DNA of 64,000 bases from Pyrodictiaceae archaeon (lineage in GTDB: Archaea; Thermoproteota; Thermoprotei_A; Sulfolobales; Pyrodictiaceae): positions 128,880-192,879 of the forward strand of contig JALVSY010000007.1 of NCBI GenBank assembly GCA_027036135.1, given 5' to 3'. Under the pieces are notes generated by a model. That model had not been told where the DNA came from, did no database searches, and was given only the letters and a program-made list of their open reading frames with translations. Position numbers and translations under genes: made by a program. Of the stretch, positions 2,288-15,125 are shown piece after piece (the first letter of the stretch is position 1; every line of letters begins with the position of its first letter).

Positions 2288-3028
2288 TTGGCTGGTCGCA
2301 GCGGTGTGTCGGGGAGTATTGTCTTTGGAGAGGAGGTATCCTCAGGTCCTTGGAGGCTTAGGCGTAATGGTGTTGCCCGCATAGAGTTCCGTGACAACGT
2401 TATGAGGCTCTGTATGGGGCCTACTGAGGCGCTCTATTATTCCAACGCCGAGGTTAGTGATGGTGGGTTCGACTACTTGCCTCATAGTAGTGGTGTCTTG
2501 GAGGTTAATGCTAGGCTTACCCGGATGCACTTTGGTAGCGCGGGGTGGGGTTTCTGGAACTATAGTATGAGGATTGATGAGAGCTACCCTGTCTGGTTCA
2601 TCTACCTCTACACCCCCGGGCCCTACTTGCTCAAGGGCTTCTTCGCCCAGACTGGGGGCTTGTTCACCCCGGTAACGCTCTATCACCGCGGGGGCCGCGA
2701 GAAGCTCTACTACAGACTAATAGCGATTCTTTCTAGGATTGGGCTGGGGTTCGTACCTATACGTATTAGCCCTGGCCGCCCTGTTCTACCAGGCTTTGAT
2801 GTGACAAGGCCGCATAATTACCGTATTGAGTGGAGGCAGGGAGTTGCCCGCTACTATATCGATGGGAGGCTAGTCGCCGAGCATAGTGCTAGGCAGCTAC
2901 AGGCCCGCGTCGATATATGGATTGACAACGCTGTCTATACTCCCAGGCGCGGTGACCCCGCGAGGGTTTATCGCCACGTAACTATGGAGAACCGGGCCGA
3001 GGCCTGCCTAGAGATTATTGGGCTCTAG
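2288..3028 (+). CDS. Concanavalin-A-like lectin/glucanase-fold protein
   Basis: The 246-residue protein looks like a single jelly-roll domain of the concanavalin A-like/GH16-like kind. It has alternating beta-strand segments, a GGFDYLPHSSGVLEVNARL segment, aromatic-rich strands (WGFWNYSMRI, YPVWFIYLY) and the late HNYRIEWRQGVARYYIDG motif, common in LamG/GH16-like folds where a ligand strand ends in xYxDG. I do not see the paired-Glu catalytic motif of true GH16 enzymes, so binding is more likely than hydrolysis. There is no signal peptide, and the start is TTG. Its stop codon overlaps the kinase stop on the other strand by a few bases. Function is inferred from fold pattern only. Confidence 0.55.
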   Translation: MAGRSGVSGSIVFGEEVSSGPWRLRRNGVARIEFRDNVMRLCMGPTEALYYSNAEVSDGGFDYLPHSSGVLEVNARLTRMHFGSAGWGFWNYSMRIDESYPVWFIYLYTPGPYLLKGFFAQTGGLFTPVTLYHRGGREKLYYRLIAILSRIGLGFVPIRISPGRPVLPGFDVTRPHNYRIEWRQGVARYYIDGRLVAEHSARQLQARVDIWIDNAVYTPRRGDPARVYRHVTMENRAEACLEIIGL

Positions 3029-4947
3029 TGGGAAGGGCATAGCTTGTTGCAGATGCTCCACTCGCTTGGCCCGCGGCTAGCTATGCACGCTAGGCATGCC
3101 GCTACCTGGCTTGCTGCTGGCCTCTCCCCGGGGTTTGTCGAGAGCATTTTCTCTAGCAGGGGTGCTAGTTTCTCGGCGCTACTCCTCCTAAGGAGCTTCG
3201 TTGCTTGTTCTGTGCTGCATGCCAGGCCTTTCTCGTAGTCTATTCTGCATAGCCTTGTGTGCTTGAAGCTTATGACTTGTTTCTGCTTCATACCGGTTAG
3301 TAGCTGAAGGAGTATCATCCCTAGGCTATACGTGTCCTGGCTAGGCTCTGCCACGGGTATTCTTGTACAAATAGGGGCTGTTTTCTTTCCCAGCTCGTTG
3401 CAGACCAGGTCGTAGCCCTCTAGCTCTGGTGCAGCGTAGCCAGGGGTGAGCTGCACCACTGGGCTACCTATCTTCACCGCTGCCCCTAGGTCGGATAGCT
3501 TGGGGACAATGCTTGCCCTCTCTGGTTCTAGTAGGGCTCTCTGTAGCTCGGGTAGCAGCCTTGTTGGCTCCACGGGGGGCTTCGAGGTGAACAAGATATT
3601 CTCGGGCTTCATGTCGCCGTGAACGTAGCCGCTTCCATGGACGTGGGCGAGGGCCTTAGCCACTACCGCGCCTATGGCGGCCACGACCCTGACCCACGAG
3701 GGGTTATTGGGGCTCGCTACTCGCCTCCTCCTAGCCTCCTCTAGGAACCCTACCAGGCTGCCACCGCCGAGGTACTCCATTATTATCGCTGGCGGCGATA
3801 CCATGTATATCTCTAGGCTGTCTTCCCTCACAGCCCTCGCGAGCCTCTCGGAGTCAATGTGTATCGCGCGCAGCCTCGCGACGTAGGGGCTCTTCTCGCT
3901 AAGCTCCCTGAGACTCATAGCCTCGCGCTCCAAGTCCCTCGCTACCACGAGGACGTCGCGTACAAGCCTGCTAGTAGTCTCCCCTGGGACCGGTGGCGGG
4001 AGAGGAACCAGGAGCTTGATCGCGGCCTTGTCCCCGGGGTCTTCGCGGGCATGTGCGCGCAGCACTACCCCGAATCCACCACTACCAATAAACTCCTCGA
4101 CAACGTAGCCATGAATCTCTCTCCCCACGAGGCACTTCTCCACGACCTCTCTACGGTTACGCGCTAGCTCCGAGAGCCTCACACCCCTGCAACTATCGCT
4201 CTGGGAAGGAGCACTGTTCACAGATTCCCCGCGGGGAGCCTGTACTTGCCTGGGCACGGCTACTCGCTGCGCCGTCTTAGGCCTCGCCACAACTACTCTG
4301 GGCTTCTCCATTGCCTGTTTCTTGGCCGCGCGCCGCGCAAGCGCTAGCTCGTAGCCCATGTAGATGAGCGCAGCCGAGGCTGTATAGTAGAGGACTGCCT
4401 CGTAGAGCGTGACACTTAGGCCTAGGAGGGGGCGACTGGTTAGCGGCGTGCTTGGCTTTGGTAGGCCTAGGTAGCTCCAAGAAGCGTCGTAGAACGAGTA
4501 GAGGAGAGCAACTATGCCCACTACGCTGCTAGTGGTCGCGGCGAGCCCGAGGCCTAGGAAGAAGAGAGGCGAGGACAAGTAAGCAGAGTAGATCATATCC
4601 TTTACCGGGGCCTGCCGGAGCAGTGCTGGTAACTGTAGGTGAGTAACTGATAACAGGTAGCTAGTTAGGGGCGGGACTAGGGGCGCGAGGAGACCATAGT
4701 ACCCGGATAGAACTCCTAGCCTACTCCACCCTAGACTCATTATGACCAAGCCGCTGAAGACAGCGAAGTAGGCTATAGCTGAGAACAACGTGTAGTTGCC
4801 TAGCTGGCCCCCCGTGCCCAGGCCGTAGAGCCACCACTTAAACGGGTCGAATACGAGGCCCTGGCTACGAGCCATTAGCTCTAGGAGAGCAGCCGAGTAT
4901 AGCCCGATTACTAGTAGCGCGTAGCCAGCTATGCGCGAGCGCTCCAT
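3025..4947 (-). CDS. Membrane-anchored eukaryotic-type Ser/Thr protein kinase
   Basis: The 640-residue protein is predicted to phosphorylate Ser/Thr residues on partner proteins. Residues 1-205 hold about five or six membrane helices. A basic/Pro-rich linker to about 250 leads to a cytosolic kinase domain at roughly 278-625. Kinase motifs are the glycine loop GSGGFG (288-293), Lys311 in AAIKLL, the alpha-C Glu in LEREAMSL, the catalytic loop HGDMKPEN (Asp445), DLG in place of DFG (Asp486) and AAPE (505-508). HGD instead of HRD means activation-loop phosphorylation is probably not required. Cysteines cluster near the C-terminus. The PPP phosphatase gene lies nine bases upstream on the same strand, so kinase and opposing phosphatase are very likely one operon. 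Closeness to ArnA/ArnB-like genes suggests these as substrates. Confidence 0.9.
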   Translation of the reverse strand: MERSRIAGYALLVIGLYSAALLELMARSQGLVFDPFKWWLYGLGTGGQLGNYTLFSAIAYFAVFSGLVIMSLGWSRLGVLSGYYGLLAPLVPPLTSYLLSVTHLQLPALLRQAPVKDMIYSAYLSSPLFFLGLGLAATTSSVVGIVALLYSFYDASWSYLGLPKPSTPLTSRPLLGLSVTLYEAVLYYTASAALIYMGYELALARRAAKKQAMEKPRVVVARPKTAQRVAVPRQVQAPRGESVNSAPSQSDSCRGVRLSELARNRREVVEKCLVGREIHGYVVEEFIGSGGFGVVLRAHAREDPGDKAAIKLLVPLPPPVPGETTSRLVRDVLVVARDLEREAMSLRELSEKSPYVARLRAIHIDSERLARAVREDSLEIYMVSPPAIIMEYLGGGSLVGFLEEARRRRVASPNNPSWVRVVAAIGAVVAKALAHVHGSGYVHGDMKPENILFTSKPPVEPTRLLPELQRALLEPERASIVPKLSDLGAAVKIGSPVVQLTPGYAAPELEGYDLVCNELGKKTAPICTRIPVAEPSQDTYSLGMILLQLLTGMKQKQVISFKHTRLCRIDYEKGLACSTEQATKLLRRSSAEKLAPLLEKMLSTNPGERPAASQVAACLACIASRGPSEWSICNKLCPSH

Positions 4948-4956
4948 GAATCATCC

Positions 4957-5940
4957 CTATGTGTTGCCGAGAACGCTCTCGTCCCGGGCACCCTCCTCGC
5001 CGCTACCAGGGCCCTCCTCCGAGCCATGGGTGTCGCCGGGGTAGTATATGGGCTTTAGCTTCTCCTCACCAAGATCCAGTAGGAGCACTGCCGCCCGCCT
5101 CCCGTGATAGAGGCTAGAGAACACAGTCACGACCCCATACTCTAGCTCACCGAGACCAACCTCTCCCTCAAGGACCCGTTGCCCGCCATTGCCGAGCCAG
5201 GCATGGGTGCCATCAACTACCTCGTGGCCCCGGATTATCAGGGATAAGCCGTTTTCTCGGAGAAACTCCCTCCACGCAGCCCTCCCGTAGAGATAGGTGC
5301 CAGGCCCCCGTGGCCCAGGGAGGAACCACTCAATAGTCCCGCGGGGATCGTTCCACAGGAGCTGGCCGATAACGGGATCCGCCTCCAAGGGGTAGAAGGC
5401 CTTGTCACTACTCCTCATCTTCTCGGCGCGCTCAGCTATCTCCTCGAGCGAGACTGGCGGCTCGGGGCTCATAGAGCACTTCTTACAGGGAACACCAGCG
5501 TGGACGAGGAGCACGGGGCCAGCGATAGCGGCCACGGGCATAGCTATGTAGACTATGCTTGCTGCACCGAAGTAGTTCTCACCCCTCTTCTCATAGGCCT
5601 CCTCGGCGAACCCGTAGCTAAGATTCATCCCCGGGTCCTCATGGTTACCCCGCAACAAGTAGACATTATCGTTCTCGAGGAAGACTCTCAGAACAAGCTC
5701 AAGATTCTCGACGCCACGCGGGCCACGGTCAACATAGTCCCCGAGGAAAACAACAGCGTCAACACCCTCCTCTCTCGCTACCCTGAGAGCCCACTCAGAG
5801 ACCTCGGGATAGCCATGAGTATCTCCGACAACGAGGAAGCGCTCACCACTCAGCCGGAGCACCGCTGGCTGCTCAGCAAGCCTCCCCGCAGCCTCCTCCA
5901 AGAGACTAAAAGACTCGTCAAACCCGGTACCAGAACCCAA
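4957..5940 (-). CDS. PPP-family Ser/Thr protein phosphatase
   Basis: This 327-residue metallophosphoesterase carries the full PPP signature: GDTHG (39-43), GDYVDRG (about 67-73) and RGNHE (about 97-101), followed by the later His ligands in LVHAGV and IRGHE. It should remove phosphate from Ser/Thr using a two-metal centre, as in archaeal PP1/PP2A-like enzymes. The C-terminal 30 residues are acidic and Gly-rich, probably disordered. It is the first gene of a two-gene unit with the membrane kinase, nine bases apart, so writer and eraser are produced together. Two Cys in PCKKCS sit between the catalytic motifs and could be redox or metal sensitive (inference). The family call is firm. Confidence 0.93.
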   Translation of the reverse strand: MGSGTGFDESFSLLEEAAGRLAEQPAVLRLSGERFLVVGDTHGYPEVSEWALRVAREEGVDAVVFLGDYVDRGPRGVENLELVLRVFLENDNVYLLRGNHEDPGMNLSYGFAEEAYEKRGENYFGAASIVYIAMPVAAIAGPVLLVHAGVPCKKCSMSPEPPVSLEEIAERAEKMRSSDKAFYPLEADPVIGQLLWNDPRGTIEWFLPGPRGPGTYLYGRAAWREFLRENGLSLIIRGHEVVDGTHAWLGNGGQRVLEGEVGLGELEYGVVTVFSSLYHGRRAAVLLLDLGEEKLKPIYYPGDTHGSEEGPGSGEEGARDESVLGNT

Positions 5941-6036: not shown

Positions 6037-6390
6037 CTAGACTAGCAGCGCCCTTATTGGGCGAAGAACGCGCTTGAAGGGGTCAAGCACTAGGCCAAAT
6101 ACCTCGAGAGTCACTACCCCGAGAAGATTCTCGTCATCCTTCTCCCCGAGCACAACGGGTGTATGCCTCTCACCATACCCAGGTAGCTCGAGAAGAACCT
6201 CTGAGACCTTACGCTTAACAACACTGCCATCGGCTAGGACAAACTCCATCTCACCCAGAGGCTCTAGGGCAAGCCAGCGCCACACATCCTCGCGCAAAAC
6301 AGTGTACGTCGCACCACTATCCACGAGAAAGCGCACTCTCTTCTCCCTACCACGATGCTTCACAACACCATCAACGTATACAATACCCAT
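6037..6390 (-). CDS. Retropepsin-like (clan AA) aspartic protease domain protein
   Basis: This small protein is a single retropepsin-like half-protease. The active-site motif FLVDSGATYTVL is followed about 60 residues later by LLGVVTLEVFGLVLDP, the usual second signature of clan AA single-domain proteases. Such proteins work as homodimers, each giving one catalytic Asp. The ORF is open to 6417, but I chose the ATG at 6390 because AGGTGGTGAG lies a few bases before it on the minus strand. It lies next to the kinase/phosphatase operon with a 97-base gap. Substrate unknown. Many archaeal members are uncharacterised, so proteolytic activity is an inference from the DSGAT motif. Confidence 0.75.
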   Translation of the reverse strand: MGIVYVDGVVKHRGREKRVRFLVDSGATYTVLREDVWRWLALEPLGEMEFVLADGSVVKRKVSEVLLELPGYGERHTPVVLGEKDDENLLGVVTLEVFGLVLDPFKRVLRPIRALLV

Positions 6391-6551
6391 TAACAGCTCA
6401 CCACCTGCTATGTACACATGTTTTAAGGTTTAGAAACTAACAGCTTATTTGAACACTTGTCTCACCGTTACCATTACTAATTAGTGCTTTACGTTATTAG
6501 GGGCTTGCCGAAGAGGCGGCTCAGAGCCTATTAGTTAGTACCTGGGTAACT

Positions 6552-6837
6552 ATGTTTCTTAGGGTGACTGTGCCTGGCCAAGTTACGGGCAAAAGTTAGG
6601 GTTGGTAAGCGAGGCGTTATAGTTATTCCGAAGAATATTCGTGAAGAACTAGGAATAGCGGAAGGCATGGTGCTTGAGCTAAGCGTTGAGGATGACCGTA
6701 TAGTCCTTCGTAAGGATAAGGATCTATGGAGTGAACTGAGAGAACGTGGCAAGAGGCTCAAGGCGGACATTGATAAGGCTGAATCGGAGCTAGATGAGGC
6801 GGAGGAGCTTTGGGAGAAGAGACTAGAAGAGTACTAG
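6552..6837 (+). pseudogene. AbrB/SpoVT-type VapB antitoxin, frameshifted near the 5' end
   Basis: From 6592 the frame ending at 6837 encodes a typical AbrB-fold antitoxin: VRVGKRGVIVIPKNIREELG, then a strand pair and an acidic coiled C-terminus (AESELDEAEELWEK) that would mask the toxin. This frame has no ATG, GTG or TTG after the upstream stop. In the neighbouring frame an ATG at 6552 starts MFLRVTVPGQVTGK and runs into TAG just after an AAAA run (6591-6594). Removing one A joins the two pieces into a complete AbrB protein, so a single-base insertion is the simplest reading. The stop overlaps the toxin gene. If the break is real, toxin is made without normal antitoxin, unless slippage or a non-standard start restores it. 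Confidence 0.65.
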
Positions 6838-7265
6838 TTGACACTTATGCTATTATCGCTGACTTAACGGGCCAAGTCACGCCAAAGGCTCGCCAGCTCT
6901 TAGAAGAGATAAGGCTAGGAGTTGCTGAAGGCGTTTTGCACTATCTCATAATTTATGAACTCTTTTATCATTGGAGAAGAGGCAGACTGCCCTTTAGGGA
7001 TGAAGAGGAATTACTGGATTTTGTTAACTCGTACTTCATTGTCAAGGCGCTGGATACAACGATTGCGATAAAGGCCTCGGAGGTAAAGCTTCTTGGAGAC
7101 AGATTGCTAGTAGCAGCTAGTAATCCCAGGCTTCGTAGAAGAAGACTATCAGTGGCTGATGCAACGACTATAGCTATAGCCAAGGTAGAGAATATGCCTA
7201 TAGTTACGGGAGATATTGACTTATCCTATGTCGCTAAAAATCTCGGAGTCAGTATTATATGGTAA
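6810..7265 (+). CDS. vapC: VapC-type PIN-domain toxin ribonuclease
   Basis: The 151-residue PIN-domain protein should act as a Mg-dependent RNase toxin. Acidic residues are in place: VDTYAII (first Asp), IYELFYHW (Glu), LSVADATTIAIA (Asp) and VTGDIDLSYVAK (last acidic cluster). The start is TTG with GGAGGAG directly upstream, inside the antitoxin 3' end, so translation is probably coupled. This toxin is intact although the antitoxin frame before it is broken. It resembles the decayed toxin at 20583-21046 (VDTYALLA, VTGD/ITGDRGLGYVA), so the two loci are likely paralogues. Confidence 0.85.
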   Translation: MGEETRRVLVDTYAIIADLTGQVTPKARQLLEEIRLGVAEGVLHYLIIYELFYHWRRGRLPFRDEEELLDFVNSYFIVKALDTTIAIKASEVKLLGDRLLVAASNPRLRRRRLSVADATTIAIAKVENMPIVTGDIDLSYVAKNLGVSIIW

Positions 7266-7589: not shown

Positions 7590-8753
7590 TTAGGCTGTGC
7601 GTAGTCTTTTTGTTGCTTCACTGAGCAGTCTTCTCGTTGCTTCTTCTGCTTCTACTCCCTTGAGTCTCTTGGTCTTCTCGGCTGTTTCCAATAGTCTCTT
7701 GGTCTGCACGACGAGGTCTATTCTCTTTGTCTTCTCTGCTTGTTTCTCCGCCTCTGCTAGCCTCTTTGTTGCTGCCTCTAGGTCTCCTTTCATGAGCAAG
7801 CGGTGGGCTTCCTCTACGTATACCTGGTAGAGATAGTTGTCGTAGACGTCGCGGTTTATCCCCTTTATGTACTCCTCCCTGGTCTTGGCTGGCTCGACTA
7901 CGTAGCTGAACCTCTTGGTCTCGGTCTTGCCTGTTGCTGGGTCCTCATAGGAGACTATTACCCGGGCTACTTCGCCGCTGAACTTTGCCGGTATCTCTAC
8001 CTCGCCGTAAAGCTCCATGGATTCCTCTGAGAGGGCTGGTATGCTCAGGGTTAGCTCGTCGTAACCTATTAGCCTAGCCTCTCCCGCTATTGGCTCAACT
8101 GTTATCTCAAGGTTCTTCGCGTAGGCCTCTGGGGCTGCTGCCTCCTCGAATACCTCTACTAGTTTCTCCACGTCGGCCTCGCTCACGTGCTCCATTACGC
8201 CGTGGCCTAGCTCCGCTAGGAGCGCTAACAGCTCCTTGTTGTAGTCCAGCCCAACGCCTATCACGTAGGCCTTCATCTTCTCGGGCCACTTGAGCTCCCG
8301 GTACTTCTCAGTACTCGTTATATCGGTTGGCTTCCCATCGGTCACGAGCACTATGTAGCCTGGCTCCCGATAGGCCTCGGCTATCTCGAAGGCCCTCTTT
8401 AGGGCACGGTAGAGCGGGGTACCGTCATCCGGGACTATAGTTGCCACAGCATCTAGTATCGCTTCCCTAGACTTCTCCGCATCAGCGTGCACGACGAGGT
8501 CGCGGGCCTGTAGCCCACCGAGGCCAAAGGCTATCAGTGTGACATAGTTGCCCCCGGGTATGAGCTCGACAAGCCTAGCAATAGCCTTCCTGGCGGCCTC
8601 TATCTTCTCCCCCTTCATGGAGCCACTAGCATCAATCAACACTATGTAGTGTAGCCCCTTGACACGGGCCGGGGCAGAGGAGGGCGCTAGGCGGAGACGA
8701 AACGCACCCTTCACAGGGGATACGAAGCTGTACTTATGGCTCTGCTCAAACAC
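7590..8753 (-). CDS. arnB: VWA-domain protein, ArnB-like, with repeated Thr motifs in its tail
   Basis: The 387-residue protein has a von Willebrand A domain with a complete MIDAS site: DASGSM (41-46), the Thr in DDGTPLY and the Asp in VTDGKPTD. A beta-rich middle domain follows (about 200-300), then a helical C-terminal tail. The tail (about 324-386) has six T-[KR]-R-[LI] motifs at Thr 329, 342, 351, 361, 373 and 381. This architecture, next to a zinc-ribbon/FHA gene on the other strand, matches ArnB of Sulfolobus, a VWA protein that is phosphorylated, binds the FHA protein ArnA and represses archaellum genes. The start is GTG. Orthology is inferred from domain order and neighbourhood. Stand-alone CobT/ChlD-like function is an alternative, but no AAA+ partner is present. 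Confidence 0.82.
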   Translation of the reverse strand: MFEQSHKYSFVSPVKGAFRLRLAPSSAPARVKGLHYIVLIDASGSMKGEKIEAARKAIARLVELIPGGNYVTLIAFGLGGLQARDLVVHADAEKSREAILDAVATIVPDDGTPLYRALKRAFEIAEAYREPGYIVLVTDGKPTDITSTEKYRELKWPEKMKAYVIGVGLDYNKELLALLAELGHGVMEHVSEADVEKLVEVFEEAAAPEAYAKNLEITVEPIAGEARLIGYDELTLSIPALSEESMELYGEVEIPAKFSGEVARVIVSYEDPATGKTETKRFSYVVEPAKTREEYIKGINRDVYDNYLYQVYVEEAHRLLMKGDLEAATKRLAEAEKQAEKTKRIDLVVQTKRLLETAEKTKRLKGVEAEEATRRLLSEATKRLRTA

Positions 8754-8925
8754 TATGTCTAGGCCCAGGAGAAACCACCCATACGGAACCTAGCCAAGGC
8801 CAGCCCCCATTATCTCTAACTACAGGGCAAGACAGATAACGATACGGCAAAAACACATGGCGCTGATGCGTGGTGCTGCTTTTCTACCCACGATACGGTT
8901 ACTCGTATACTGGTAGGGGAGAGCT

Positions 8926-9615
8926 ATGCCCTGGAAATGCCCAGTCTGCGGCCACGTAAACCCGGATGACAAGGAGTTCTGCGAGGTCTGTGGTGCGAAG
9001 AGGCCAGAGAACCCGGAGATCGTTGAAGCAGCTAGCCCCGAGGCTGTTAAGCTACAGGAGCCGAGAACCGTGGAGCCAGTCGGGGAACAGGCCGCGCAGG
9101 AGCAGAGCCCTGAGCAAGTAGAGGCAGTTACCGCCGAGGCCGGGGCAGTAGAGGAGAGCGCCGAGGAGAAGGTTGAGGAAGCTACCGAGGTTACCGAGGA
9201 GGCTGGAAAGGAAGCCAGAGCCGCCGAGAAGCCCGAGGAGACGGAGACCGCTAAGGAGCCCGTTGAGGAAAAGGCCCCGGAGACCATTTATCTCGAGGTC
9301 GTTAATAGCCCGGCCCCGGAGCTCATTGGGAAGAAGATACCCGTGCTTCTCAAGGTGTTCCCCCAAGTCAGTATTGGGAGGAGCCCAGAGAACGTGATAA
9401 TACTACCCGATCCCACGGTTTCCCGGAGACACGCAGTGATAAAGACCGAGGATGGGAAGCTAGTGCTCGAGGACCTTGGCAGCACTAATGGGACCTACGT
9501 ATACCGCCAAGAGAGCGGTGGCTTCGAGAAGGTTGAGAAAGTGGTGCTCGAGCCCGGTATGATCATAAGGTTCGGCGAGCAAACCATTGTACGCGTCACC
9601 ACGGAGCCAGCCTAG
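8926..9615 (+). CDS. arnA: Zinc-ribbon/FHA-domain protein, ArnA-like
   Basis: The 229-residue protein has three parts. A double-CxxC zinc ribbon lies at the N-terminus (Cys 5, 8, 19, 22: CPVCGHV and CEVCGAK). A long Glu/Ala/Pro-rich, probably disordered linker spans about 28-118. An FHA domain at about 120-226 has the core GRSPEN (151-156), SRRHA (166-170) and GSTNGTYV (185-192), which hold phospho-threonine in the family. This is the layout of ArnA, partner of the VWA protein ArnB, encoded here on the opposite strand from a shared 172-base intergenic region. Its likely role is to read phosphorylated Thr on the VWA tail or the kinase. A hairpin with a T-run follows the stop. Confidence 0.85.
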   Translation: MPWKCPVCGHVNPDDKEFCEVCGAKRPENPEIVEAASPEAVKLQEPRTVEPVGEQAAQEQSPEQVEAVTAEAGAVEESAEEKVEEATEVTEEAGKEARAAEKPEETETAKEPVEEKAPETIYLEVVNSPAPELIGKKIPVLLKVFPQVSIGRSPENVIILPDPTVSRRHAVIKTEDGKLVLEDLGSTNGTYVYRQESGGFEKVEKVVLEPGMIIRFGEQTIVRVTTEPA

Positions 9616-12099: not shown

Positions 12100-14484
12100 T
12101 TGCTGCAAGAGAGTTCTATTCACCGCGGACCCCGAGCCAGGGGGTACCGTGGTATATCAACCGCGATAGCAGGGCTAATAGTGCTCACATTCCTCCTAGC
12201 CGTAGCCATACCGCTTCTCCTCAACATATACTCAGGGAGCGTACAATCACACCTCGCACTCAGCAACGAGCTAGCAAAGAAGCTGCAGGCTGTGTCACAG
12301 AACGTGAACATAACATATGACCCAGCTAGCTCGTCACCCCCAAGTCTGAGAGTCTACATAATGGAGAATAATGGGCCAAGTGATGCACATATAGAGTTCT
12401 ACGTTGTCACAGATGGCGCCAAAACCTATCTCGTAAAGGCTGCTAATACTTATAACAAGTATTTCCCGGTTAAAGACATTGAGATAGAAACCGAGCCCGT
12501 TTCCGCCTCAAATATAGTAGGCAGCTATATTGTGCTGAAGGCGCCTCTAGGCAAAGCATTAGTGAGGGTTATCAACGGGAAGCTTCTCGGAGCAATATTG
12601 GCGACGGGGAACTATATCCACGTAAACACGCCAGGAGTCACAGGAGCTACGGCTACTTATGCAGAAGTAGCCGCAAGTATAAAGACGAATTATATTAACT
12701 TGACAACGTTTAGCAGCCTCACGGGACTCTTTAACGACCCTAACATAATAATTGCTACGAATCCAGCTGCTAACCAGAGTAACTCCACATTATTGAACCA
12801 AGGAGCGTTCCAAGCCATTTGCTTTACTGGAACCAATCCCGACGACCCTAGCGGGGGGGTTAGTGGCGGCTTCCAGCCAACCGTTGACTCGGAGCAAGTA
12901 AACGCTGTCTATATTCATAATCTAGGGATATGGCCTGGCTCCATGGTGCTCGGGGGACGAAGCACAGACTATAGTACTAACTCAATACGATTCAGCCTAT
13001 ATATGGCAGGATATAGTCTCATAGCGTACAATACTAGCGAGCCCGGATTCCTCGCAATAACCACGGCTCATGATGGAAACGCGCTATGCTATAGCTTCGT
13101 CTTCAGCGATGGATACGTTATTAGCGATTGTATGCCAGAGGGAAGCATCACATGGGCATCATCCTTTATATCCTATGCGCTCTACAAGACTATGGCTGGA
13201 AAGCCCCAATACGGTACCTCGTACGTAGCAAGCGACACGCTCAATACAGTATTTAACACGGTGTATAGTGGTAAACTAGGCCTACTCTTCTGGAACAGTA
13301 ACTTCGTGGCTTATTGTCCTCCAGGCAGCTTTCATCTAAGCACAATGAGCGGTGAATACGTCTTCAACGTGACCGGGACTTGCTGGTTTGCTGAAAGATG
13401 GGAGAGTTACTGGGGTGAGGGAGCCTATGAAGGCATTATTAACGCTGGTAGCACGCTTACAATAACGTCTCCTCAAGAAATATTCGGGGATAATGACGTC
13501 GGAATAAAAGGTGAGGCAAGCGGCAATGTGCACTATGTGATAGAGTACATGCTAGATGCAAACCCTCTCGAGGTAAACGATAACCCTGACTTCGTGCAGG
13601 AATTCCCACAGTATCCGTCAGTGATAAAACTAACTTATTTAGCGGGTGATAAGAACCTACTCAGCGTATATGATAACACAGCAGGGAGAATTAAAAGAGG
13701 AGTTAATGCTTTCGGCATTTATCTCTACGGAGGAGAGTATCTAGCAACCGAGAGTGGGGCATCATACATTTACTATTACATACACGACTTATACGGCGAG
13801 GACGGCTATATAAGCGTATTTCAGTTCCAATTAGGAACCACGAGCGGATTAAGACCTTATATGGTACTCGCCGATACTGATGGAAACGGGCTTACTGAAC
13901 TCGTCTTGATAGATGAATGGTTTAGTCCAGATTATTATTATCATACTCATACAGATCTCTCAGATCTAGTAGGCGCCGGCGATATACGCTCAAGGTACTC
14001 ATATCACCCAGCAGCAGGGCTAATTGATACCTATGTCGGGTATGGCTGTGTTGCAAAAACCCTTGGCTACTTCTACATCAAGTTTGGCGGACAGTATGCA
14101 GTGAATGGTAGCCAGATAGCCGAGGTAAGCGTCCAGATACGCTTCAGCTACCACGACAACGTCGCAGGCGACGTAGATGAGGTAGACAACAGCACCACAG
14201 GTCTATTTGGCTTCGCCCTCGTGAACAGCAATGGAACCGAGGTATCAAGCAGCATGTACAACTACCAACAACTAGCGCCCCTCGAGGACACGTGGCCCAT
14301 CAGCATGCCTTTCCAGAGCCAGAGCGTCTACCTACCCGTGCCCGACAAGCCCGAGCTCTACTACGTTGTGTTCAAGTTCGGCGACCCTTATTCCTACGTC
14401 TATAGCGCGCGTAAACTCATACATGACGACGTCGACATGACTATAAGAGTTGAGTGGCTCGGAATATGGTATCTGCACCGCTAG
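12100..14484 (+). CDS. Large secreted pilin-like surface protein
   Basis: The 794-residue protein starts at TTG. It has an archaeal class III (type IV pilin-like) signal: basic RARGYRG, a cleavage site after Gly18, then the hydrophobic stretch ISTAIAGLIVLTFLLAVAI. The rest is an extracellular, beta-rich, Gly/Ser/Tyr/Asn-rich region with many N-glycosylation sequons and a few Cys. This is far longer than ordinary pilins (120-250 residues), so it may be an adhesin or tip protein assembled by pilus machinery. A TATA-like CTTATAAC lies about 55 bases upstream. A smaller pilin-like gene follows after 17 bases, forming an operon. The next genes upstream encode Arn-like signalling proteins. I recognise no named family for the ectodomain. 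Confidence 0.75.
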   Translation: MLQESSIHRGPRARGYRGISTAIAGLIVLTFLLAVAIPLLLNIYSGSVQSHLALSNELAKKLQAVSQNVNITYDPASSSPPSLRVYIMENNGPSDAHIEFYVVTDGAKTYLVKAANTYNKYFPVKDIEIETEPVSASNIVGSYIVLKAPLGKALVRVINGKLLGAILATGNYIHVNTPGVTGATATYAEVAASIKTNYINLTTFSSLTGLFNDPNIIIATNPAANQSNSTLLNQGAFQAICFTGTNPDDPSGGVSGGFQPTVDSEQVNAVYIHNLGIWPGSMVLGGRSTDYSTNSIRFSLYMAGYSLIAYNTSEPGFLAITTAHDGNALCYSFVFSDGYVISDCMPEGSITWASSFISYALYKTMAGKPQYGTSYVASDTLNTVFNTVYSGKLGLLFWNSNFVAYCPPGSFHLSTMSGEYVFNVTGTCWFAERWESYWGEGAYEGIINAGSTLTITSPQEIFGDNDVGIKGEASGNVHYVIEYMLDANPLEVNDNPDFVQEFPQYPSVIKLTYLAGDKNLLSVYDNTAGRIKRGVNAFGIYLYGGEYLATESGASYIYYYIHDLYGEDGYISVFQFQLGTTSGLRPYMVLADTDGNGLTELVLIDEWFSPDYYYHTHTDLSDLVGAGDIRSRYSYHPAAGLIDTYVGYGCVAKTLGYFYIKFGGQYAVNGSQIAEVSVQIRFSYHDNVAGDVDEVDNSTTGLFGFALVNSNGTEVSSSMYNYQQLAPLEDTWPISMPFQSQSVYLPVPDKPELYYVVFKFGDPYSYVYSARKLIHDDVDMTIRVEWLGIWYLHR

Positions 14485-14501
14485 GAAGTGGGTGAAGCGC
14501 T

Positions 14502-15125
14502 TTGAGGGCGCAGGCGGAGGTTATATCAACCGCTATAATAGTATCGGTCGCGCTTATAGTGGCGCTTGGGCTGATTTATTACCTTAACCCGTTTACTGCA
14601 AGATCCCAGAGCCAGTATAAGCTCTACAGTCTCTTAACCTCCTATGCATCCGAGCTGGAAATAGCTCCCGTATCAACCATTAATACTACCTTGAATACTA
14701 CATCAGTGCTCATTGTTAAGAATACAGGGTCTCTGGGATTCCGTGCCTACTTGACGATAGTACCGTTCTACCAACGAGCCCCCGTAGAGGCTAATGTAAC
14801 CGGGCTAGTGTATAATATGACGAGTAACTACTCTGTTATTGATCCGGGTGATTTCACTGGGTGGACCCAGCTTAATGGGACAAATGTATCAGCGTTCAAT
14901 ATTCATCTCTACATTACTTCATCGTATTACAGATTATCCGACTTCGTTGGTGCAGCGAATGTAGCAGTGTACGATCTGGGAGTATTGAGTCCAGGTACTA
15001 CCCGTGTACTTAAAGTTGTACTAGTAAACCCTATCCCTACATATAGTTACTCAGTTATTATTCTTGCACGTGTTAGTAATGATTACTACGAGGTAGGGCG
15101 CTTCATACTATATAGTAGCGGCTAA
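14502..15125 (+). CDS. Pilin/archaellin-like secreted protein
   Basis: The 207-residue protein begins MRAQAEVISTAIIVSVALIV, an archaeal pilin/archaellin-type N-terminus. The hydrophobic helix is about residues 7-27 and the processing site probably follows the short polar head. The remainder is beta-rich, Thr/Ser/Asn-rich and has several N-x-S/T sequons, as expected outside the cell. The start is TTG with GGGTGAAG upstream. It lies 17 bases after the giant pilin-like gene, so the two are co-transcribed and probably co-assembled. No assembly ATPase is adjacent; the nearest one here is at 58.9-60.3 kb. Whether it forms a filament is inference. Confidence 0.75.
   Translation: MRAQAEVISTAIIVSVALIVALGLIYYLNPFTARSQSQYKLYSLLTSYASELEIAPVSTINTTLNTTSVLIVKNTGSLGFRAYLTIVPFYQRAPVEANVTGLVYNMTSNYSVIDPGDFTGWTQLNGTNVSAFNIHLYITSSYYRLSDFVGAANVAVYDLGVLSPGTTRVLKVVLVNPIPTYSYSVIILARVSNDYYEVGRFILYSSG

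What the first reader, a model, noticed from the sequence alone, without database searches (positions are those of the whole stretch)
7590..7784. Six T-[KR]-R-[LI] motifs in the VWA tail: a multivalent phospho-Thr docking array?
The tail has Thr 329, 342, 351, 361, 373 and 381, each in the same T-[KR]-R-[LI] setting, spaced 8-13 residues. FHA domains bind phospho-Thr and read the +3 residue, which here is always Leu or Ile. An FHA protein is encoded next door. The tail could therefore count phosphorylation events or give graded binding.
Basis: partly seen in the sequence, partly recalled or inferred. Interest (0 to 1): 0.75.

Follow-up and report, generated by a model that had tools for sequence, protein, structure and literature searches.

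The report
Archaeal ArnB multi-phosphothreonine docking tail
The tail of this archaeal signalling protein carries six near-identical threonine motifs that line up one-to-one with sites known to be phosphorylated in its Sulfolobus counterpart, so it is a conserved multi-site docking tail for a phosphothreonine-reading partner: a known kind of switch, here in a relative that seems to have no swimming organelle for it to control.

Summary
In detail: T329, 342, 351, 361, 373 and 381 each head T-[KR]-R-[LI]; no shuffle of the tail in 100,000 gave more than two. The protein is ArnB (ArnB_C domain; model TM 0.92 to S. acidocaldarius ArnB), next to ArnA (zinc ribbon + FHA). The six Thr correspond in order to S. 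acidocaldarius T322, T335, T344, T354, T363 and T375 (site 5 by order, not column). Published work reports phosphorylation at five of these, and at T353, beside T354, for the sixth. There the phosphorylated tail binds ArnA's FHA domain, with redundant sites. Added here: the array is near-universal in ArnB; all six Thr are invariant in five Pyrodictiaceae sequences; paralogues that lost sites 4-5 lost the aliphatic +3 residue of site 2 in parallel; +1/+2 basic fits a kinase mark, +3 fits FHA reading, though several +3 residues also face the helix core. Remote VWA proteins paired with FHA-only proteins keep just two Thr. The window genome shows no archaellin or ArlJ, so the array is not kept for motility alone. 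Counting is untested.

The parts
7590..8753 (-). ArnB orthologue: VWA domain (aa 37-187), beta-sandwich, ArnB_C four-helix tail (aa 301-386)
   Evidence: PF13768 3.6e-15, PF18677 1e-7; 8s05_A 6.4e-70; AlphaFold2 pLDDT 94, TM 0.92 to 8s05
7758..7769 (-). site 1, T329-KRL (helix 325-342); = Saci T322
7719..7730 (-). site 2, T342-KRI (C-end of helix 325-342; +3 is the first residue of the next helix); = Saci T335
7692..7703 (-). site 3, T351-KRL (helix 345-363); = Saci T344
7662..7673 (-). site 4, T361-KRL (C-end of helix 345-363); = Saci T354
7626..7637 (-). site 5, T373-RRL (helix 366-386); counterpart of Saci T363 by order, spacing differs
7602..7613 (-). site 6, T381-KRL (helix 366-386); = Saci T375
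8926..9615 (+). ArnA orthologue: zinc ribbon + linker + FHA (reader); phosphate-site residues R152, S166, R167, T187
   Evidence: PF00498 7e-19, PF13240 2.7e-6; 5a8i 8e-32; alignment
3025..4947 (-). Hanks-type kinase with N-terminal hydrophobic (membrane) segments (probable writer)
   Evidence: PF00069 5e-20; HGDMKPEN, DLG, AIK and TM-like segments
4957..5940 (-). PPP-family Ser/Thr phosphatase (probable eraser)
   Evidence: PF00149 1e-25; GDxHG, GDxVDRG, GNHE motifs

Best explanation
[quoted passage not shown] A Hanks-type kinase (probably the membrane kinase encoded alongside) reads the basic T-x-R surroundings and phosphorylates several of the six Thr. In the resting state these sit at helix ends or on inward helix faces of a four-helix bundle, so phosphorylation loosens the bundle and exposes T-x-x-[LI] peptides that the single FHA domain of ArnA can bind interchangeably, while ArnA's zinc ribbon holds a weaker constitutive contact. 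The PPP phosphatase encoded nearby resets it. Shown here: family identity, the site-for-site match, conservation, predicted fold, conserved FHA phosphate pocket, gene neighbourhood. Shown by others in Sulfolobus: phosphorylation, bundle loosening, FHA binding, redundancy, reversal by PP2A. Inferred: that all this holds in the window organism, which kinase writes, and that +3 Leu/Ile is read by the FHA. A graded response by site number is plausible but unproven.
For: ArnB_C hit and fold. Alignment puts window T329/342/351/361/373/381 against S. acidocaldarius T322/335/344/354/363/375. PMC12852372: T353, T363, T375 phosphorylated within 5 min, T322 and T335 later; T353A/T354A or T359A/T363A lowers FHA binding at short times only; HDX shows the tail loosening. 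PMC5300886: T343, T344, T353 in vivo, T344 by both kinases. PMC7472852: phosphorylation drives ArnA/B assembly, PP2A reverses it. All six Thr invariant in five Pyrodictiaceae ArnBs (46-73% identity to the window), tail Thr outside the array not. 34 ArnBs average 4.4 T[KR][KR][LIVM] per tail against 0.08 shuffled. Arg enriched 4.6-fold at +2 of pThr in S. islandicus (PMC7744417). Site 2 +3 aliphatic in 30 of 34 ArnB but 2 of 26 four-site paralogues, lost in parallel with sites 4-5 in nested paralogues. S. islandicus ArnA binds ArnE about nine times less than ArnB (PMC10470591). Kinase-PPP-ArnB-ArnA neighbourhood kept in G401, G408, G410.
Against: No phospho data exist for the window organism. 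At site 4 published MS places the phosphate on T353, whose +3 is Arg, not on T354. PMC12852372 did not see T343 phosphorylated in vitro, unlike PMC5300886. An eight-Thr-to-Ala mutant still bound ArnA after long phosphorylation, so there is no strict dependence on these sites. In family f61 ArnBs the +3 of sites 2 and 6 is Thr or Ala. The neighbouring kinase is not clearly orthologous to ArnC.
Confidence: 0.83

Rival explanations
1. T-[KR]-R-[LI] is mainly a helix pattern: Thr and Leu three apart fall on the same face of an amphipathic helix with K/R outside, so the repeat reflects packing of a helical bundle and not FHA docking.
For: AlphaFold2 puts all six Thr in helices; by helical phase T351 and T373 and the +3 Leu of sites 1, 3, 5, 6 point to the hydrophobic face. 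The ArnE paralogue keeps four sites although S. acidocaldarius ArnE was reported not to bind ArnA (cited in PMC12852372).
Against: A packing role does not explain why Thr, not Ala/Leu/Val, is nearly invariant at five positions in 34 ArnBs, nor why site 5 keeps its motif at a different spacing, nor the mapped phospho-sites. I345 (+3 of site 2) points away from the core yet is aliphatic in ArnB and mostly polar in paralogues.
Confidence: 0.1
2. The motif is only a kinase (and phosphatase) recognition sequence; multi-site phosphorylation acts by charge, melting the bundle, and the FHA reads just one or two sites or other pThr.
For: +2 Arg is the most fixed neighbour at sites 3 and 4 (34 of 34 and 33 of 33) and is the pThr-linked residue in S. 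islandicus. Off-target phosphorylation compensates for site loss. HDX shows order-to-disorder.
Against: The +3 position is aliphatic at most sites and at site 2 is lost together with sites 4-5 in paralogues; remote VWA partners of FHA-only proteins keep T-x-x-[LIV] without the basic residues.
Confidence: 0.3
3. A true counter: binding or output changes only after a set number of phosphates, because low-affinity sites act together (allovalency) or bridge ArnA/B oligomers.
For: Near-equal spacing and equal motifs; phosphorylation yields (ArnA/B)2 and larger complexes (PMC7472852); four-site ArnE binds about nine times less than ArnB (PMC10470591).
Against: No threshold has been measured; ArnE differs elsewhere too; ArnA has one FHA domain; ArnB is bound after three fast sites.
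Confidence: 0.2

Closest known systems
ArnB (Saci_1211) of Sulfolobus acidocaldarius with ArnA (Saci_1210)
   Same: Same fold (TM 0.92, 34% identity), same ArnB_C tail, six Thr sites in the same order, ArnA with zinc ribbon + FHA next door
   Different: Window tail has the strict motif at all six sites; Saci site 1 is TRTV, others TRRM/TRRI/TRRI/TRKI/TKKL; site 5 spacing differs; kinase and PPP phosphatase lie beside arnAB in the window; no archaellin or ArlJ found in the window genome
ArnE / vWA2 (5a8j)
   Same: Same three-domain fold, sites 1, 2, 3 and 6 present; S. islandicus ArnE phosphorylated at T314, T327, T351, whose spacing fits sites 1, 2 and 6
   Different: Lacks the segment with sites 4 and 5; +3 of site 2 is mostly polar or Pro; binds ArnA weakly or not at all
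VWA + FHA-only protein pairs in other families of the order (L027-L030, L038-L046)
   Same: VWA protein with helical tail, FHA gene directly next to it, kinase gene next in L149 and L151; whole proteins align by profile (E 1.4e-45)
   Different: FHA without zinc ribbon; only two invariant tail Thr, in T-x-x-[LIV] without basic residues

Membership tests
ArnB | VWA domain with MIDAS residues | tested here: met
   PF13768/PF00092; D41-x-S43-x-S45, T112, D139 present and invariant in alignment A1
ArnB | ArnB_C domain / three-domain fold | tested here: met
   PF18677 32.1 bits against cut-off 26.3; TM 0.92 to 8s05
ArnB | Extended tail with all six sites, unlike ArnE | tested here: met
   tree from tail-free sequence places Pyrodictiaceae outside the four-site paralogue clades, deep order unresolved
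ArnB | ArnA partner with zinc ribbon and phospho-competent FHA | tested here: met
   R152, S166, R167, T187 equal Saci R132, S146, R147, T167
ArnB | Tail phosphorylated in cells and by a Hanks kinase | not testable with these tools
   Only the Sulfolobus orthologues have data
ArnB | Represses the archaellum | tested here: inconclusive
   No PF01917 and no ArlJ in the window genome, 99.6% complete; a different target is likely, function itself not testable
pT+3 FHA ligand | Aliphatic residue at +3 read by the FHA | tested here: inconclusive
   L/I at +3 in all six; site 2 contrast with paralogues; confounded by helix packing at sites 1, 3, 5, 6; no binding test

The most novel reading that the evidence does not exclude
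T-x-R-[LI] is a composite code in which one stretch carries both the kinase mark (+1/+2 basic) and the FHA mark (+3 aliphatic); a two-Thr VWA-FHA-kinase switch found across the order was expanded in ArnB to a six-site array that tunes binding strength by site number, and in archaellum-less Pyrodictiaceae this module, with writer, eraser, reader and substrate in one locus, controls something other than swimming (perhaps the pilin-like genes just downstream).
Probability: 0.3. Interest if true: 0.68.

Novelty: new member of a known kind. Interest (0 to 1): 0.45.

Why it matters
Archaeal phospho-signalling has very few worked-out motifs. The six-fold T-[KR]-R-[LI] array gives a concrete, testable sequence code for the ArnA-ArnB switch, suggests which Thr in the ambiguous TT pairs of Sulfolobus ArnB is the docking site (only the second has a counterpart in the window), and shows that the switch persists where no archaellum genes were found, so its output is unlikely to be motility alone. 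The natural series of two-, four- and six-site tails would let site number be related to binding.

Tried and rejected
Recent DNA repeat expansion: rejected, codons of the six motifs differ. Low-complexity chance: rejected by shuffles. Named relatives by a scan of genome contigs with the single protein found nothing; a mixed ArnB/ArnE alignment was too diverse to scan with; a Pyrodictiaceae-only alignment found Pyrodictium sp. DIMAG01 and a Pyrodictiaceae MAG. A paper search for a stated T-x-x-I/L motif in ArnB found none in the held library, though many papers are not held, including Reimann 2012. Direct ArnC orthology of the neighbour kinase: not supported, several S. acidocaldarius kinases match about equally. 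Archaellum control as the reason for the array: rejected for this genome.

Full report
Observation. The ORF at 7590-8753 on the minus strand encodes 387 residues. T-[KR]-R-[LI] occurs six times, at T329, 342, 351, 361, 373 and 381, and nowhere else in the protein. Shuffling the last 67 residues 100,000 times gave at most two copies. The six copies use different codons, so they are not a recent DNA repeat.

Identity. Pfam finds a VWA domain and, over residues 301-385, ArnB_C above its cut-off. The closest solved structure is S. acidocaldarius ArnB in the ArnAB complex (8s05, E 6.4e-70). An AlphaFold2 model built with 36 family members (pLDDT 94) matches 8s05 with TM 0.92 and the paralogue ArnE (5a8j) with 0.82. 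The divergently encoded neighbour (8926-9615, +) is ArnA: zinc ribbon plus FHA, with the four phosphate-site residues of Saci ArnA (R132, S146, R147, T167) present as R152, S166, R167 and T187 (alignment; Saci numbering from PMC6509490).

Site-for-site match. Locus L007 carries the S. acidocaldarius ArnB (its tail is identical to chain 8s05_A) and its numbering agrees with the papers. Window T329, 342, 351, 361 and 381 align with Saci T322, T335, T344, T354 and T375; T373 corresponds in order to T363 but with different spacing on both sides. PMC12852372 reports T353, T363 and T375 phosphorylated by ArnC within 5 min and T322 and T335 later. PMC5300886 reports T343, T344 and T353 in vivo and T344 as a target of both ArnC and ArnD. 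Thus every array position has a reported phospho-site at, or (site 4) one residue before, the aligned Thr. In the window only the second Thr of each Saci TT pair exists, which predicts that T344 and T354 are the functional ones.

Known mechanism in Sulfolobus. Tail removal abolishes phosphorylation and weakens ArnA binding (PMC6509490). Phosphorylation loosens the helical bundle and lets the FHA bind; T353A/T354A or T359A/T363A matter only at short phosphorylation times, and even an eight-Thr mutant binds after long times. Phosphorylation drives (ArnA/B)2 and larger complexes, reversed by PP2A (PMC7472852). So redundancy is established; counting is not.

Conservation. In five Pyrodictiaceae ArnBs (46-73% identity to the window) all six Thr are invariant while T357 and T386 are not. 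Across 34 ArnBs (Pyrodictiaceae, the family of S. acidocaldarius, and an outside family, f61) sites 1, 2, 3 and 6 are Thr in 34 of 34 and site 4 in 33 of 34; tails average 4.44 T[KR][KR][LIVM] against 0.08 in shuffles. The window, its congener G401 and G410 have the strict motif at all six positions.

What the flanking residues do. Arg at +2 is fixed at sites 3 and 4 and Arg+2 is enriched 4.6-fold at pThr in the S. islandicus phosphoproteome (PMC7744417): I read +1/+2 as the kinase mark (inference). The +3 residue is ambiguous. At sites 1, 3, 5 and 6 it lies on the hydrophobic helix face, so packing could explain it. Site 2 is the cleaner case: its +3 residue is the first residue of the next helix and points outwards by phase (a crude estimate), yet it is aliphatic in 30 of 34 ArnB and in only 2 of 26 four-site paralogues, where it is otherwise E, Q, P, T, S or A.

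Paralogues as a natural experiment. In a tree made without the tails the four-site tails fall in two separate places: the ArnE clade, and a group (L032-L036) nested among ArnBs. A further nested duplicate, L037, also lacks sites 4-5. All three carry a non-aliphatic residue at +3 of site 2 (two ArnE rows, with Val, excepted), and L111, which has lost site 4, has Pro there. Family f61 is the exception: sites 4-5 kept, +3 of site 2 Thr or Ala. This parallel loss suggests that sites 4-5 and the +3 of site 2 serve one function, most simply FHA docking; the number of events is small. S. islandicus ArnE is phosphorylated at T314, T327 and T351, whose spacing (13, 24) equals that of sites 1, 2 and 6 in its genus, and its ArnA binds ArnE about nine times less than ArnB (PMC10470591), consistent with, but not proof of, graded binding.

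Wider family. VWA proteins in other families of the order, and in Pyrodictiaceae genome G074, are paired with a short FHA-only protein directly next to them, with a kinase gene following in two loci inspected. Their tails keep just two invariant Thr, each with an aliphatic residue at +3 in nearly all, without the basic residues, and profile comparison aligns the whole proteins at E 1.4e-45, with the two Thr next to sites 2 and 3. In 36 chosen genomes all 24 with such a VWA had an FHA gene, against 1 of 12 others (the list was my choice, not a random sample).

Neighbourhood and output. Kinase, PPP phosphatase, ArnB and ArnA lie together in the window and in G401, G408 and G410; f61 has the same four in one cluster. 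The kinase has catalytic motifs and N-terminal hydrophobic segments; the phosphatase has PPP motifs. Neither has been shown to act on ArnB. The window genome (99.6% complete) has no archaellin match and no ArlJ match, although G401, G408, G410 and G208 do. The array is therefore not kept only to control swimming. S. islandicus ArnA represses pili and DNA-damage genes (PMC10470591); in the window two proteins with pilin-like N-termini lie downstream of arnA, also in G401, a lead only.

Verdict. A real, conserved multi-phosphothreonine docking tail: known in kind, new in this lineage, with a clearer motif than had been stated in the papers I could read. Counting remains open.

Noticed in passing
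window 12100-15125 (+): Two genes with pilin-like hydrophobic N-termini (RGISTAIAGLIVL; AQAEVISTAIIV), no Pfam or NCBIfam match, downstream of arnA; both also follow arnA in G401 (L145 10840-14080). Possible output of the switch.
   Followed up: partly
whole genome G000: No archaellin (PF01917) and no ArlJ match, while the congener G401 and other Pyrodictiaceae have them: archaellum apparently lost in this organism.
   Followed up: partly
L149 8600-11829, L151 7750-10956: VWA - FHA-only - kinase gene row with a two-Thr tail, apparently a simpler relative of ArnA/ArnB not described in the papers found.
   Followed up: partly
L152 4887-9839 (genome G332, family f61, outside the order): Kinase, ArnA, PPP phosphatase and ArnB in one cluster; ArnB about 36% identical to the window's. 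Possible gene transfer.
   Followed up: no
window 8754-8771: The ArnB reading frame runs on upstream of the GTG start; relatives begin M-x-L-x-V-x-F and the window reads CTG-G-L-D-I-V-F, so translation may start at a CTG five codons earlier.
   Followed up: no
window 6564-7265 (+): Short ORF resembling an AbrB-type antitoxin followed by a PIN-domain protein (PF01850 7e-12): a VapBC-like pair between the phosphatase and ArnB.
   Followed up: partly
window 6037-6417 (-): Small retropepsin-like aspartyl protease domain protein (PF13650 9e-9).
   Followed up: no
L037 (G244), L111 (G532): Further ArnB copies that have lost sites 4-5 or site 4, independently of ArnE.
   Followed up: partly
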